From assembly GCF_009720365.1 (NCBI RefSeq), contig NZ_ML769318.1, positions 124,001 through 188,000 of the forward strand: 64,000 nucleotides of DNA, in the 5' to 3' direction. The notes below the pieces were generated by a model that saw nothing but the letters and a program-made list of their open reading frames with translations, was not told where the DNA came from and searched no databases. Source of the stretch: Catellatospora paridis (lineage in GTDB: Bacteria > Actinomycetota > Actinomycetes > Mycobacteriales > Micromonosporaceae). Of the stretch, positions 22,322 through 26,912 are shown one piece after another; position 1 is the stretch's first letter; each line of letters opens with the position of its first letter. Made by a program: the position numbers and the translations under genes.

Positions 22322-22544
22322 GCTTCCTCCGGGGCGGACGGGTGCGCGGGGGTGCGCACCTACGTCGTGGCCCAACGAAGGCTTGTGGGCAGGGTTACGG
22401 CAAACCCGAAGACCTATCCATAAGAGCTAACGACGAATCAACCGAAAAGGTACGCAACTAGATCTGTTCCTCCAGGCTGCGCTTTCCCGGATCCCGACCG
22501 TCGCGGATCTCCGCGGATGCGCGAAACCGGGCTATCGTGTGCCG
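22322..22544. promoter_or_regulatory. Divergent intergenic region
   Basis: A 223-bp spacer between the divergent LPRTG-protein and PSP1-type genes. It is noticeably less GC-rich around 22420-22480 (ATAAGAGCTAACGACGAATC, AGGTACGCAACTAG), as expected for promoters. I could not fix either -10 or -35 box confidently. Confidence 0.35.
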
Positions 22545-23399
22545 ATGGGCATGCTCTGCGCGGTCACCTTCAACCGGTACGGGAAGCTGTACTACCTCGA
22601 TCCCGGTGAGTTCCGGCCGCGTGTCGGCGACAAGGTGCTGGTGCACACCGACGACGGCCCCGAGGTGGCCGACTGCGTGTGGGCGGCCGAGTGGAGCGAG
22701 GAGGACACCTCCGGCTTCCCGAAGGTCATCGGCATCGCCGGTCCCGAGGACGTGGGCCGCGACGAGCTGATCCGCCAGCGCAAGGCCGAAGCCCGCGTCG
22801 CGTCGAACCGGCTGATCCGCGAGCACCAGCTGCCCATGAAGGTCATCGCAGTGGACCACGTGCCCGGCGGCCCGGCCGACGGCGACGACCCCGGCCCGAG
22901 CCCGCGCACCACCGTCTACTTCACCGCCCCGCACCGGGTCGACTTCCGCTCGCTCGTCCGCGACCTGGGCGCGACCCTGCGCTGCCGGGTGGAGCTGCGC
23001 CAGCTGTCGGCCCGCGACTCGGCGAAGGTGCAGGGCGGCATCGGCTCGTGCGGCCGCGACCTGTGCTGCGCGACGTTCCTGACCGAGTTCGAGCCGGTCA
23101 GCATCCGCATGGCCAAGGAGCAGGATCTGCCGCTCAACCCGATGCGCATCTCGGGGGCGTGCGGCCGGCTGATGTGTTGTCTGAAGTACGAACATCCCAT
23201 GTACCAGGATTTCCACGGTTCCGCGCCGGCCATCGGCGAGCAGGTCAGCACGCCCGAGGGCGACGGCCGCGTGGTCGGGCACTCGGTGCCCCGCGACGCC
23301 GTGGTGATCCGGCTGGCAGCGGACGGCTCCCGCACCGTCTGCCCGAAGGCTTCGGTGTGCGGGAGCCGCAAGTCGTACGAGGACCGCTACGCCGTGTGA
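22545..23399 (+). CDS. PSP1 domain-containing protein (RicT/YaaT-like)
   Basis: A 284-aa protein of the PSP1/YaaT family. It has the conserved Cys-rich core GSCGRDLCC and, later, ISGACGRLMCCLKYE, which in Bacillus RicT helps bind Fe-S clusters in the Y-complex for RNA processing. The role in actinobacteria is less clear. I chose ATG 22545 (MGMLCAVTF); GTG at 22539 is also possible. It is the only intact copy, but its last 79 bases are repeated at 24507-24585, beyond an inserted gene. Its tail therefore differs in origin from, or was duplicated with, that islet. Confidence 0.92.
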   Translation: MGMLCAVTFNRYGKLYYLDPGEFRPRVGDKVLVHTDDGPEVADCVWAAEWSEEDTSGFPKVIGIAGPEDVGRDELIRQRKAEARVASNRLIREHQLPMKVIAVDHVPGGPADGDDPGPSPRTTVYFTAPHRVDFRSLVRDLGATLRCRVELRQLSARDSAKVQGGIGSCGRDLCCATFLTEFEPVSIRMAKEQDLPLNPMRISGACGRLMCCLKYEHPMYQDFHGSAPAIGEQVSTPEGDGRVVGHSVPRDAVVIRLAADGSRTVCPKASVCGSRKSYEDRYAV

Positions 23400-23400
23400 C
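23322..23400 (+). repeat. Direct repeat copy 1: 3' end of the PSP1-type gene
   Basis: A 79-base segment covering the last 25 codons and stop of the PSP1-type gene. It matches 24507-24585 at 76 of 79 positions. The three differences are Ala GCT/GCG, Arg CGC/CGT and Lys AAG/Arg AGG, that is, two silent changes and one conservative change. Together the repeats bound a ~1.1-kb islet. Confidence 0.9.
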
Positions 23401-23429
23401 GTGGTTCGGCACGCAGGATCGGCATGTGC

Positions 23430-23462
23430 GAGGGCCCTCGGCGGTGCTTGCCGAGGGCCCTC
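23430..23462. terminator. Bidirectional terminator between PSP1-type and CPBP genes
   Basis: A perfect 13-bp stem (23430-23442 with 23450-23462) around a 7-nt loop lies between the converging PSP1-type and CPBP genes. It is inside the islet, not in the displaced original end. Confidence 0.7.
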
Positions 23463-23508
23463 TGCTCATGTGGGCCGTGTTGCGCGGATCAGGAAGGTCG
23501 GCTGGCGG

Positions 23509-23622
23509 TCACCCGCGCCGGTCGGTGGGTCGACGTAGACCGAACTCCATGTCCACGGTATGGCCCGCGGCCTCGATCGCGGCGACCGTGCGGGTCCGCA
23601 TCGCCTCGGCGTATCCGGTCAC
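23509..23622 (-). CDS. Possible 37-aa small protein coupled to the CPBP gene
   Basis: A 37-codon frame starting with GTG at 23622, overlapping the CPBP stop by 4 bases (GTGA), a typical coupling arrangement. It encodes a short amphipathic helix (AEAMRTRTVAAIEAAGH) and a basic end (LRRPTDRRG). It is too short to identify and could be a chance frame or remnant. The overlap is the main support. Confidence 0.3.
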   Translation of the reverse strand: MTGYAEAMRTRTVAAIEAAGHTVDMEFGLRRPTDRRG

Positions 23623-24431
23623 GGCGTCACGCCCAGGATGATCGCGATGGTGCCGGCCGTGGCCATGAGCAGGCAGGTGCCGGGGTGCATGCCGATGGAG
23701 ATCCGGATGTCGTGCTTGCGCCAGACGAGCCAGACCGCCGGGAACAGGAAGATGATCTTCGACAGGACGGTCCACGGCGCCCAGAAGTGGTAGACCGAGA
23801 ACAGGACCGTGTTGAGCACGGGTGCTCCCCAGCGCAGGTGGGAGATGCGGGGCAGCAGGAACCCGCGGAAGTAGTACTCCTCGATCAGGGGCAGCGTGAA
23901 GCCGGTCAACGGCAGACAGATCAGCATCGTGACGACCAGCTGTGCGTGGGAGTACCCGTCGATGTAGGTGGTGGCGCTGCCGCCGGCTCCTTCGAAGGGG
24001 ATCCAGGTGAAGAAGTTGTCGAAGACGAAGTTGTCCAGCGGGACGAGGGCGAGCGACACCACCGTCATCCACACGATGAGGCCGGCGACGAGGGCGATGA
24101 TCTTCCCGCGCCCGATCGGTTTGTCCCGGTAGTGGGCCACGGTGCGCAGTGTGTAGCGGCCGGTGCGTTTGCGGCCCAGCCACAACAGGCCGAACAGCAG
24201 CGGTGCGAGCACGATGACCAGGGCGATCGCCCAGGCGAGGAAGACCGGGTAGTCGATCGCTTTGACGAACGGCTCGGCGAGGAACAGGTAGGCGGCGACG
24301 ACCAGGGCACCGGGCACGAGGTGTAGCGCGATCGACAGCGGAAGCGAGTGACGGTCGGCGAGCAGCAGTTCGACCAGGCGGTTCGGGCGGGTGGCCGTCG
24401 TGGCGGCGGTGCGGGTCAGGGTGTTCTCCAT
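23619..24431 (-). CDS. CPBP-family intramembrane metalloprotease
   Basis: A 270-aa membrane protein with about seven hydrophobic segments. It has the CPBP (CAAX protease/bacteriocin-processing, Rce1-like) motifs: EEYYFRGFLLPR (EExxxR) and a later H in SVYHFWAPW, with a final Asn/His-type helix replaced by GMHPGT. Members cleave within the membrane or aid immunity to peptides; the substrate is unknown. The ATG at 24431 has no clear ribosome-binding site. It is the only full gene of an islet bounded by a duplicated PSP1 3' end, which suggests it arrived by recombination. Confidence 0.88.
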   Translation of the reverse strand: MENTLTRTAATTATRPNRLVELLLADRHSLPLSIALHLVPGALVVAAYLFLAEPFVKAIDYPVFLAWAIALVIVLAPLLFGLLWLGRKRTGRYTLRTVAHYRDKPIGRGKIIALVAGLIVWMTVVSLALVPLDNFVFDNFFTWIPFEGAGGSATTYIDGYSHAQLVVTMLICLPLTGFTLPLIEEYYFRGFLLPRISHLRWGAPVLNTVLFSVYHFWAPWTVLSKIIFLFPAVWLVWRKHDIRISIGMHPGTCLLMATAGTIAIILGVTP

Positions 24432-24454
24432 ACCGCAGAGATTCGCCGCGCCTC

Positions 24455-24502
24455 CTGACATCGGCCTGTCTCGGCCCTGACACGGCGCGAAGGGTTCTGA
24501 CA
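24455..24502 (-). promoter_or_regulatory. Three TGTCAG repeats upstream of the CPBP gene
   Basis: On the minus strand TGTCAG occurs three times (24455-24460, 24477-24482, 24497-24502), at 22- and 20-base spacing, just upstream of the CPBP start. The roughly two-turn phasing suggests an activator or repressor site. No known factor is assigned. Confidence 0.35.
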
Positions 24503-24506
24503 GTCC

Positions 24507-24585
24507 GACGGCTCCCGCACCGTCTGCCCGAAGGCGTCGGTGTGCGGGAGCCGTAGGTCGTACGAGGACCGCTACGCCGTGTGAC
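24507..24585 (+). repeat. Direct repeat copy 2: displaced 3' end of the PSP1-type gene
   Basis: This copy preserves the reading frame of the last PSP1 codons to the stop but has no gene body upstream. The convergent metallophosphoesterase gene ends within it (stop at 24572), so before the islet the two genes overlapped tail to tail by about 13 bases. It looks like the original end, now displaced. Confidence 0.85.
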
Positions 24586-26338
24586 TCGGGTCCTCCGCGT
24601 CGGAGGGCAGCACGGTGGGCGGGGCGGCGTGCTGCTTGGCCGGGCCGAGGGTGATGACCTCGTCGACCAGGCGCGGCTTCAGCGCCGTGGCCGGGCGGAA
24701 CCAGGATCCCGTCGGCTGGGCCAGCCACTTCTTCGAGATCTTGTCGACGCCGACCACGTAGATGCTCAGCGTGCCGTCGGGGGCGAAGCGCATCCGCAGG
24801 AAGCTCTTGAAGTCCTCGATGCCCTGGCCGGCGTACAGCTCGTTGACGTTCACCTTGAACGAGGCCGCGATCAGCAGGTACAGCGACACCAGCAGCGCCG
24901 CCGCGACCCCCGCCGGGGTCAGGTACACCACCACCGCCAGGGCGGCCTGCACCGCGGGTTTGTAGCCGTCGAACGGCAGCAGCCGCCACAGGGACAGCCC
25001 CACCACGCCCAGCGCGATGTGCGCGCAACCGTGTAGCGCGCCCAGCACCACCGGTGTCGTCTTCGCCGCGGCCTCGGTCAGGCCGACCGAGAAGAACACG
25101 CACGAGAACATCACCAGCGCGGTCATCATGAAGATCGGCACGGTGAGGATGCGGCCCGCCGCGTTGTTCAGCGACAGCATCAGCATCGTGTGCATGATGC
25201 CGAGCATGGTGGCGAAGCCCGGGTTGCGCCACGGCAGGCGGGCGAAGACGCCGCTGCCCAGCCAGCGCGAGCGCAGCTTGCTCGGGTACGTCTTCTGCAG
25301 CGCGTACGGCATGCCGGTGCTCTGCCGGCGCACCTGTGAGTGCTTGGGCGGCACGGTGATGGCCTGGGGCAGGTGGTTGGTGGCCGCCATGTAGGCGCCG
25401 CCGCCGCCGCAGGTGATGAGCTGCTGGCCGCTGTCACTCTGCGCGTAGCGCGCGTAGTGGTGCAGGTCGCCGCTGACCATCAGGGCCACGCTCGCGCCGG
25501 TCGGGTCGATCACGGTACGCAGGAAGTAGTCGATGGTGTCGTAGTAGAGCGGGTGCTCCTCGGACTGCACCCAGGCCGGCTGCGGGGTGACCAGGATGAT
25601 CCGGTCACCTTCCTCGATGTTGGCGGCCACGCCCCGGAAGTACTCCAACTGCGGGTCGTCCATGTAGGCCGCGCCCTGGGCGTCCAGCGCCAGCAGCCAC
25701 CAGCGGTGCGGCAGCTGCAGCGCGAAGTACGAGCGGGTCTGCTTGGTGCGCCAGCCGCCGATGCGCGAACCCTCGCGCCGGGCGAACAGGCGCAGGAACG
25801 CGGTCAGGCCGTCGTACCAGTCGTGGTTGCCGGGCAGCGCGAACAGCGTCGGCCCGTTCTCCGGCGGGACCTGCGGCAGCGCCGCGCGGAACGGGCCCTC
25901 GAAGCGGTCCTCGTATGCCTTGCCGCTGGCCGTCGGGTACACGGAGTCGCCGCCGAGCACCAGCACCCGGCCGCGCGGCAGCCGCTCGCCGCTCGCCTCG
26001 ACCTCCTCCTGCGCCAGCAGGTAGGCCATCGAGTAGGTGGCGTCGAACCCGTCGCCGAGGTCGGCGATGTAGTCCAGCCACAGCTCCTCGTCGTTGACGT
26101 GCTCGTCGTGGACCTTGGTGGGGAAGGCGTTCTGGAGTTCGCGCTTGTCCAGATAGGCGCCGAACTGTGCGGCGAACGCGACGCGGACGCCCGTGGCGGC
26201 GAGCTGGAGCGGGCTCAGCCAGGCCACCGGAGGTTGGGGGGTGAATCCGAGCTGCGCGGGCTCGAGTTTGCTCGGACGGTGCGTCCGGCCCGACACCGGC
26301 GTCGGGTCTGAGGGACTGCGCGGAGGGATCACGGTCAC
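24572..26338 (-). CDS. Metallophosphoesterase with C-terminal membrane domain
   Basis: A 588-aa protein. The N-terminal ~380 residues form a calcineurin-like phosphoesterase with metal-site motifs LGGDSVYP, ALPGNHDWYDG and MVSGDLHHYAR. The C-terminal part holds several hydrophobic helices (GIMHTMLMLSLNNAAG, IFMMTALVMFSCVFF, ALAVVVYLTPAGVAA), so it is membrane-anchored. A soluble tail follows. The substrate is not evident. I chose GTG 26338; an upstream start at 26398 in the same frame is possible. Its last codons lie inside the displaced PSP1 end. Confidence 0.85.
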   Translation of the reverse strand: MTVIPPRSPSDPTPVSGRTHRPSKLEPAQLGFTPQPPVAWLSPLQLAATGVRVAFAAQFGAYLDKRELQNAFPTKVHDEHVNDEELWLDYIADLGDGFDATYSMAYLLAQEEVEASGERLPRGRVLVLGGDSVYPTASGKAYEDRFEGPFRAALPQVPPENGPTLFALPGNHDWYDGLTAFLRLFARREGSRIGGWRTKQTRSYFALQLPHRWWLLALDAQGAAYMDDPQLEYFRGVAANIEEGDRIILVTPQPAWVQSEEHPLYYDTIDYFLRTVIDPTGASVALMVSGDLHHYARYAQSDSGQQLITCGGGGAYMAATNHLPQAITVPPKHSQVRRQSTGMPYALQKTYPSKLRSRWLGSGVFARLPWRNPGFATMLGIMHTMLMLSLNNAAGRILTVPIFMMTALVMFSCVFFSVGLTEAAAKTTPVVLGALHGCAHIALGVVGLSLWRLLPFDGYKPAVQAALAVVVYLTPAGVAAALLVSLYLLIAASFKVNVNELYAGQGIEDFKSFLRMRFAPDGTLSIYVVGVDKISKKWLAQPTGSWFRPATALKPRLVDEVITLGPAKQHAAPPTVLPSDAEDPSHTA

Positions 26339-26453
26339 AGCAGCGCAGCCTAGTCCGCAGTGGAACAGGTCGCACCGGCCCGATCGGGCAATCCGCACCG
26401 GCTGCCGTCAACCGGACACCCGCGGTGGTGCTCGTGTGGGCGACCAGCGAAAG

Positions 26454-26830: not shown

Positions 26831-26903
26831 GCCGCCTTAGCTCAGTCGGTAGAGCGTGTTACTCGTAATAACAAGGTCAACGGTTCGATTCCGTTAGGCG
26901 GCT
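26831..26903 (+). tRNA. tRNA-Thr (anticodon CGT)
   Basis: A 73-base cloverleaf: acceptor arms GCCGCCT/AGGCGGC, D arm GCTC-GAGC, anticodon stem TGTTA/TAACA with loop CTCGTAA giving anticodon CGT, and TψC arm AACGG-TTCGATT-CCGTT. The discriminator base is T and no CCA is encoded. It reads the ACG codon, common in this GC-rich genome. Confidence 0.96.
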
Positions 26904-26912
26904 CTGCAACGT

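What the first reader, a model, noticed from the sequence alone, without database searches (positions are those of the whole stretch)
23322..24585. Gene islet bounded by a duplicated 3' end of the PSP1-type gene
Seen: 23322-23400 and 24507-24585 match at 76 of 79 bases, in the PSP1 reading frame to the stop, with only one conservative amino-acid change. Between them lie a hairpin, a CPBP protease gene and a possible small ORF. The metallophosphoesterase gene ends inside copy 2, so before the event the two genes overlapped tail to tail. Inference: DNA entered at the PSP1 3' end, brought a replacement tail, and displaced the original, much as integrative elements do at tRNA ends, but no integrase is present. 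The mismatches fit a donor from a related species or an older duplication.
Basis: partly seen in the sequence, partly recalled or inferred. Interest (0 to 1): 0.72.

Follow-up and report, generated by a model that had tools for sequence, protein, structure and literature searches.

The report
Swappable gene islets behind RicT gene
In soil bacteria of the genus Catellatospora, small groups of accessory genes have slotted into the very end of the housekeeping gene ricT, with a spare copy of that end keeping the gene whole, and one such package also turns up, tail included, in another genus.

Summary
The repeat is real: 76 of 79 bases, next best place in the window 43 of 79. The gene is ricT/yaaT; the genome is a Catellatospora. 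In six of eleven genomes of the genus the site is empty and ricT overlaps the phosphoesterase-like gene tail to tail by 13 or 4 bases. Four carry cargo, different or differently ordered, closed by a tail copy, often decayed; one has a bare tail duplication. Both flanks match the closest relative's empty site at 95-100%, so foreign DNA lies between the tails. Micromonospora arborensis has a Micromonospora-like ricT body, a Catellatospora-type tail, then the same CPBP gene. Displaced tails keep the hairpin arms better than the loop. No recombinase was recognised in these islets. Elsewhere in the family a large serine integrase uses another site in the same gene, about codon 214, and also displaces the tail. 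Insertion with tail replacement is well supported; homologous versus site-specific recombination is open.

The parts
22539..23399 (+). ricT/yaaT (PSP1-domain) gene
   Evidence: PF04468 E 1.6e-20; NF041131 RicT_YaaT_fam 226 bits, cut-off 70
23322..23400 (+). Tail copy 1, read as the incoming tail, now ricT's 3' end
   Evidence: 76/79 to copy 2; 1 difference from G002's native tail; diverges from the empty site right after the stop
23325..23367 (.). Hairpin within tail copy 1
   Evidence: Fold -32.5 kcal/mol, z -4.8; exact pattern found at this locus in 11 of 11 genus genomes and once elsewhere
23401..23618 (.). Extra stretch X of this islet, not seen between tail and CPBP in the four other ricT-linked copies
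   Evidence: Read; a 37-aa minus-strand piece has no Pfam hit
23430..23462 (.). Second hairpin, terminator-like
   Evidence: Fold of 23426-23470 -34.7 kcal/mol, z -6.6
23619..24431 (-). CPBP (Rce1-like) membrane protease gene, the cargo
   Evidence: PF02517 E 6.1e-11; clade of ricT-linked CPBPs
24507..24585 (+). Tail copy 2, read as the displaced original tail
   Evidence: 2 differences from G002's native tail; continuous with native MPE
24510..24552 (.). Hairpin within tail copy 2
   Evidence: Fold -34.7 (+) and -33.6 (-) kcal/mol; arms conserved in displaced copies
24572..26398 (-). Metallophosphoesterase-like gene, ending inside copy 2
   Evidence: ORF; PF00149 E 0.004, under its cut-off

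Best explanation
In Catellatospora the 3' ends of ricT and the convergent MPE gene share one segment of about 80 bp: ricT's last 26 codons, a hairpin that probably ends transcription from both sides, and the MPE stop codon. An insertion there is viable only if this module is doubled. Units of foreign DNA that carry a module copy enter by recombination inside the module; the incoming copy becomes ricT's new tail, and the old copy stays with MPE as its end and terminator. Further exchange between copies adds, removes and reorders units, and units spread between species and genera. SHOWN: doubled module, empty sites, alternative cargo and order, native flanks, chimeric ricT in M. arborensis, better conservation of hairpin arms than loop in displaced copies. 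INFERRED: terminator function; that the crossover is homologous or short-homology recombination (a circle with one module, or a linear occupied locus) rather than a dedicated recombinase; the direction (gain in this lineage); how the first unit arose.
For: Empty sites with 13-nt overlap (G001, G002, G005, G006) or 4-nt overlap (G008, G009); cargo in WIN, G003, G004, G010; bare duplication in G007. CPBP and the 116-aa ORF stand in opposite order in G004 and G010. Against empty G002, WIN matches at 96-100% in seven 100-bp windows of ricT before the tail and at 95-100% in ten windows of MPE. M. arborensis ricT: body 88.8% to Micromonospora-genus G248 and 77.0% to WIN; tail 65.4% to G248 and 85.9% to WIN; then CPBP at 92.8% nt to WIN. 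The five ricT-linked CPBPs, of three genera, form one clade (support 0.978) apart from the CPBPs elsewhere in C. coxensis and C. sichuanensis (18 of 20 sequences used; two partial ones left out). Nine displaced copies: 9/198 changes in arms, 38/207 in loop, 25/54 in the 3' flank; Fisher p 1e-5, positions pooled. Of 54 surveyed loci, four with native-type tail, 373-4401 bp of insert and neither displaced copy nor integrase (G020, G052, G097, G109; MPE in the other direction in G097) show no tail duplication.
Against: No circle or intermediate was seen. M. arborensis and WIN share about 16 identical bases at the inferred crossover (read), short for ordinary homologous recombination. G003's first copy runs about 13 bases past the stop into MPE-like sequence. 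Native flanks also fit an older insertion cleanly lost in G002 and G005; CPBP identities within the genus (WIN-G010 92.0, WIN-G004 89.7, G010-G004 92.2%) run parallel to ricT body identities (95.3, 93.6, 94.9%), as vertical descent would give, and WIN's own place in the CPBP clade has support 0.474. The overlap contrast rests on few loci that were not drawn at random. Covariation is not significant: one double change, reached in 67 of 500 shuffles.
Confidence: 0.5

Rival explanations
1. Site-specific integration: the ricT tail is an attB site, and the units are remnants or passengers of elements whose integrase is lost or acts in trans. The att copy restores the gene, as for Tn5253 in rbgA.
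For: Repeat of about 79 bp from the hairpin to the stop; gene restored; tail copies that begin about codon 258-262 in Catellatospora, M. arborensis and G066; accretion of units; native flanks on both sides. Tn5253 has an 83-bp attB whose duplication restores rbgA (PMC8571831, abstract).
Against: No recombinase recognised in the four cargo-bearing islets (ORF lists for three; G003 read); none of the listed integron-integrase-model hits or serine-integrase hits lies at these loci; 0 matches of one tail pattern in viral contigs; G003's repeat runs past the gene end.
Confidence: 0.22
2. Duplication first, insertion later: a tandem duplication of the tail made a free gap into which unrelated DNA fell by chance.
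For: G007 has the bare duplication; explains why each cargo is bounded by tails and why the cargo is ordinary genes.
Against: M. arborensis has a foreign tail together with CPBP, and ricT-linked CPBPs of three genera form one clade, so tail plus cargo appears to move as a unit.
Confidence: 0.18
3. Decayed remnant of the large-serine-integrase elements that target ricT about codon 214 in the same family.
For: Same gene; a displaced ricT tail downstream in 12 other family genomes, five of them with a substantial integrase copy.
Against: Breakpoint differs by about 45 codons; no attR-like sequence seen by eye in the window; in 11 genus genomes only two distant integrase hits (29 and 32%, not at ricT); Catellatospora tails are of the native type.
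Confidence: 0.06
4. Assembly artefact or chance repeat.
For: None found.
Against: Similar architecture in separately assembled species; 76/79 against a next best 43/79.
Confidence: 0.01

Closest known systems
Integrative elements at 3' ends of protein genes (Tn5253/rbgA, abstract; SGI1/trmE, start of abstract in the listing)
   Same: Integration at the end of a conserved gene; for Tn5253 a short duplication that restores the gene
   Different: No integrase or transfer gene recognised; very small inserts (0-2.4 kb); repeat also carries the stop codon of the convergent neighbour and a hairpin
Integron gene-cassette arrays (general features recalled)
   Same: Small units in different orders with a hairpin repeat between them
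   Different: No integron integrase over the family cut-off in 11 genomes; repeat is the end of a housekeeping gene
Large serine integrase elements in ricT of other family members (this work)
   Same: Same target gene, displaced old tail
   Different: Attachment about codon 214 and an integrase (phrog_95 for the two scanned) beside the displaced tail; not found in Catellatospora
Homology-facilitated illegitimate recombination or single-crossover integration (recalled)
   Same: Would give a donor tail plus cargo and a displaced recipient tail
   Different: Both ends here fall inside the same 79-bp module

Membership tests
Gene-3'-end integrative element | Direct repeats flank the insert and the target gene stays whole | tested here: met
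Gene-3'-end integrative element | Empty site in relatives | tested here: met
   6 of 11 genus genomes
Gene-3'-end integrative element | Encodes an integrase | tested here: not met
   Four cargo-bearing islets: CPBP, glyoxalase-like gene (PF00903), 116-aa ORF and 281-aa ORF without Pfam hit; no recombinase recognised
Gene-3'-end integrative element | Excised circle with one att copy | not testable with these tools
   Needs PCR or reads
Integron cassette array | Integron integrase in the genome | tested here: not met
   TIGR02249: 0 of 11 genomes over the cut-off; sub-threshold hits in 11 of 11 and in 14 of 14 control genomes
Integron cassette array | attC site with conserved R boxes | not tested
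   No motif search was run; none noticed by eye in alignment A1; consensus recalled
Integron cassette array | Units in variable order with a repeat between them | tested here: met
   G004 and G010 carry CPBP and the 116-aa ORF in opposite order with hairpin copies
ricT-targeting serine integrase element | Serine integrase next to the displaced tail | tested here: not met
   None at the window locus; no close relative in 11 genomes
ricT-targeting serine integrase element | Breakpoint about codon 214 (CLKYEHPLY) | tested here: not met
   Window copy 2 starts at about codon 262; compare

The most novel reading that the evidence does not exclude
An integron-like cassette system without its own integrase: the hairpin-bearing 3' end of ricT is the recombination site, small genes travel as circles carrying one tail copy, and units are stacked and swapped at this one site within and between genera of the family, by host recombination or a recombinase acting in trans.
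Probability: 0.17. Interest if true: 0.8.

Novelty: new variant of a known kind. Interest (0 to 1): 0.56.

Why it matters
It shows how a compact, overlapping pair of convergent genes can still gain DNA: the shared end (codons, hairpin, stop) is doubled and the foreign copy becomes part of a conserved protein. ricT is then an insertion hotspot reached by at least two routes in one family, and in several genera its C-terminal tail appears to have been replaced. Serine integrases that target a conserved ricT motif might also serve as integration tools for actinomycetes.

Tried and rejected
Genome-wide repeat or REP-like hairpin: rejected. The exact pattern was found at this locus in 11 of 11 genomes and once elsewhere, in G002 between an MFS-like and a lipase-like ORF that converge (names by eye). 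Integron: no integrase over the cut-off. Phage attP: one tail pattern gave 0 matches in viral contigs; the G298 serine integrase found no relative there either, by peptide patterns of that single protein. Descent from the serine-integrase elements: breakpoint does not fit. Papers: 0 papers hold serine integrase + attB + PSP1; searches gave only analogies. I saw passages of PMC3218068 and the abstract of PMC8571831, otherwise listings. Gain or loss in the window's lineage could not be settled: G002 and G005 are empty, G004 and G010 occupied (tree). The slight decay of copy 2 favours recent gain; gene conversion could mimic it.

Left out of counts: the query named up_20771 in q.fa was translated in a wrong frame (16 stops) and its rows were ignored; the tail strings printed for minus-strand loci were not oriented, and redid those loci oriented. 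Alignment A1 holds 16 hairpins: all nine displaced or ectopic ones I had seen and seven attached ones; the attached copies of G001, G002, G003, G006, G008 and G051 were not included. The find by protein missed the short tail copies of G003, G004, G007 and G010, so the family counts of second copies are lower bounds.

Full report
OBSERVATION. The two tails match at 76 of 79 bases; nothing else in the window exceeds 43 of 79, and no third copy was found in the own genome. The gene is ricT/yaaT (NF041131; PF04468). Between the tails lie a strong hairpin, a CPBP/Rce1-like protease gene and a short unassigned stretch. The MPE-like gene ends in copy 2.

GENUS COMPARISON. The window is G000:C9:124001-188000 of a 9.0-Mb genome. 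All 11 genomes held for the genus were compared. Empty with ricT/MPE overlap of 13 nt: G001, G002, G005, G006; of 4 nt: G008, G009. G007: a 91-nt gap that is a second tail, no cargo. G003: a 116-aa ORF and a tail copy. G004: a 281-aa ORF (no Pfam hit), the 116-aa ORF, hairpin, CPBP, hairpin. G010: CPBP, hairpin, glyoxalase-like gene (PF00903), the 116-aa ORF, hairpin tail. WIN: stretch X, CPBP, tail. So CPBP and the 116-aa ORF occur in either order. CPBP is present in 6 of 11 genomes, at ricT in 3, partial in G002; the 116-aa ORF in 7 of 11, at ricT in 3, one match per genome, partial in G007.

PRECISION. Against the closest relative G002 (empty), WIN matches at 96-100% in each of seven 100-bp windows of ricT before the tail and at 95-100% in ten windows of MPE. 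Copy 1 differs from G002's tail at one base, copy 2 at two. Foreign DNA is therefore confined between points inside the two tails, or was cleanly lost there in G002 and G005. The slight decay of copy 2, against the decayed displaced tails of G010 and G004, favours recent gain. Against that, CPBP divergence within the genus runs parallel to that of ricT.

TRANSFER BETWEEN GENERA. Micromonospora arborensis NRRL 8041 (G196; contig of 111,683 bases as in L066) has a ricT whose first 783 aligned bases are 88.8% identical to G248 of its own genus and 77.0% to WIN, while its last 78 are 65.4% and 85.9%. CPBP follows, 93.7% identical in protein and 92.8% in DNA. A stop three codons early shortens its ricT. 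The contig ends beyond CPBP, so a displaced tail cannot be seen. G066, of a third genus, has a Catellatospora-like tail copy and CPBP behind a ricT with another type of tail. The five ricT-linked CPBPs form one clade (0.978), apart from those elsewhere in C. coxensis and C. sichuanensis. Of 49 CPBP loci found in GTDB genomes, three had ricT within the fetched flank.

HAIRPIN. The exact pattern occurs at this locus in 11 of 11 genus genomes and once elsewhere, in G002, between two convergent ORFs. In nine displaced copies (eight downstream copies and the ectopic one) the arms changed at 9 of 198 positions, the loop at 38 of 207, the 3' flank at 25 of 54. Pairs kept: 9 to 11 of 11. In seven attached, coding copies arms changed at 2 of 154 and loop at 12 of 161, so the arms are the better conserved part there too. 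Covariation is not significant: one double change, 67 of 500 shuffles. This fits selection for the hairpin itself, most simply as a two-sided terminator; transcription was not tested.

FAMILY. Of 300 family genomes, 266 have a ricT match at the threshold. Fourteen besides WIN had two matches; in 13 the second is a C-terminal piece downstream on the same strand, in one (G095) two pieces of a gene on different contigs. Of the 13, ten begin at codon 200-219, the others at 239 (G028), 243 (G224) and 258 (G066). I surveyed 54 loci, chosen for second matches, low scores or genus spread, not at random. Two of the five, G298 and G200, were scanned: Resolvase and Recombinase domains and phrog_95 integrase. 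In each of the five the integrase lies beside the displaced tail. In 31 of 54 loci ricT bears a second type of tail (low scores were sampled on purpose), in 23 of them with neither displaced tail nor integrase left. Of the 12 displaced-tail loci other than G066, five have the second type and seven the native type of attached tail. That the second type is brought by elements is inferred. So ricT is a real integration target in the family, but that site is about 45 codons upstream of the window's breakpoint, and Catellatospora has no close relative of the integrase.

MECHANISM. Best supported: the shared 3' module of two overlapping convergent genes is doubled on insertion; incoming units bring a copy; recombination between copies adds and shuffles units. 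In favour of an overlap-driven need: 4 of 4 cargo-bearing Catellatospora loci have a tail copy, while four native-tail loci of other genera with inserts and neither displaced copy nor integrase have none (one of these, G097, has MPE in the other direction). Homologous versus site-specific crossover is not decided. Tn5253, whose 83-bp duplication restores rbgA, is the nearest published parallel I saw (abstract).

NOVELTY. Gene-end-restoring insertion is known. The variant here, with tiny units without a recognised integrase, changed order, a module serving two genes, and presence of tail plus cargo in another genus, I did not find in the papers searched (open-access library only).

On rereading the calls I corrected the flank range (95-100%), the description of attached tails in the integrase loci, the starts of displaced tails, and stated the sampling limits.

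Noticed in passing
L120:4455-6002 (G298); L124 (G200); L119 (G173); L122 (G119); L117 (G101): Large serine integrase family beside a displaced ricT tail, apparently using a site about codon 214 of ricT; in G200 little else lies between ricT and the displaced tail.
   Followed up: partly
31 of 54 surveyed loci: ricT carries a second, distinct type of C-terminal tail (GQRVETP..KVVSRHPPSETVTVRQ) in many genera; in 23 of the 31 neither displaced tail nor integrase is left: possibly scars of tail replacement.
   Followed up: partly
L065:5249-5292 (G002 C1:6098248): Single ectopic relative of the ricT-tail hairpin, without the coding tail, between two convergent ORFs.
   Followed up: partly
L027:1510-2340: The Catellatospora-type tail in M. 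arborensis has an in-frame TAG three codons before the usual end.
   Followed up: no
L064 (G002 C1:377053): Partial CPBP gene away from ricT (residues 139-270 only).
   Followed up: no
window 23553-23605: Piece of stretch X with short look-alikes scattered in the genus genomes, perhaps a common protein motif.
   Followed up: no
window 26831-26904: tRNA-Thr (CGT) lies 2.2 kb downstream of the islet.
   Followed up: no
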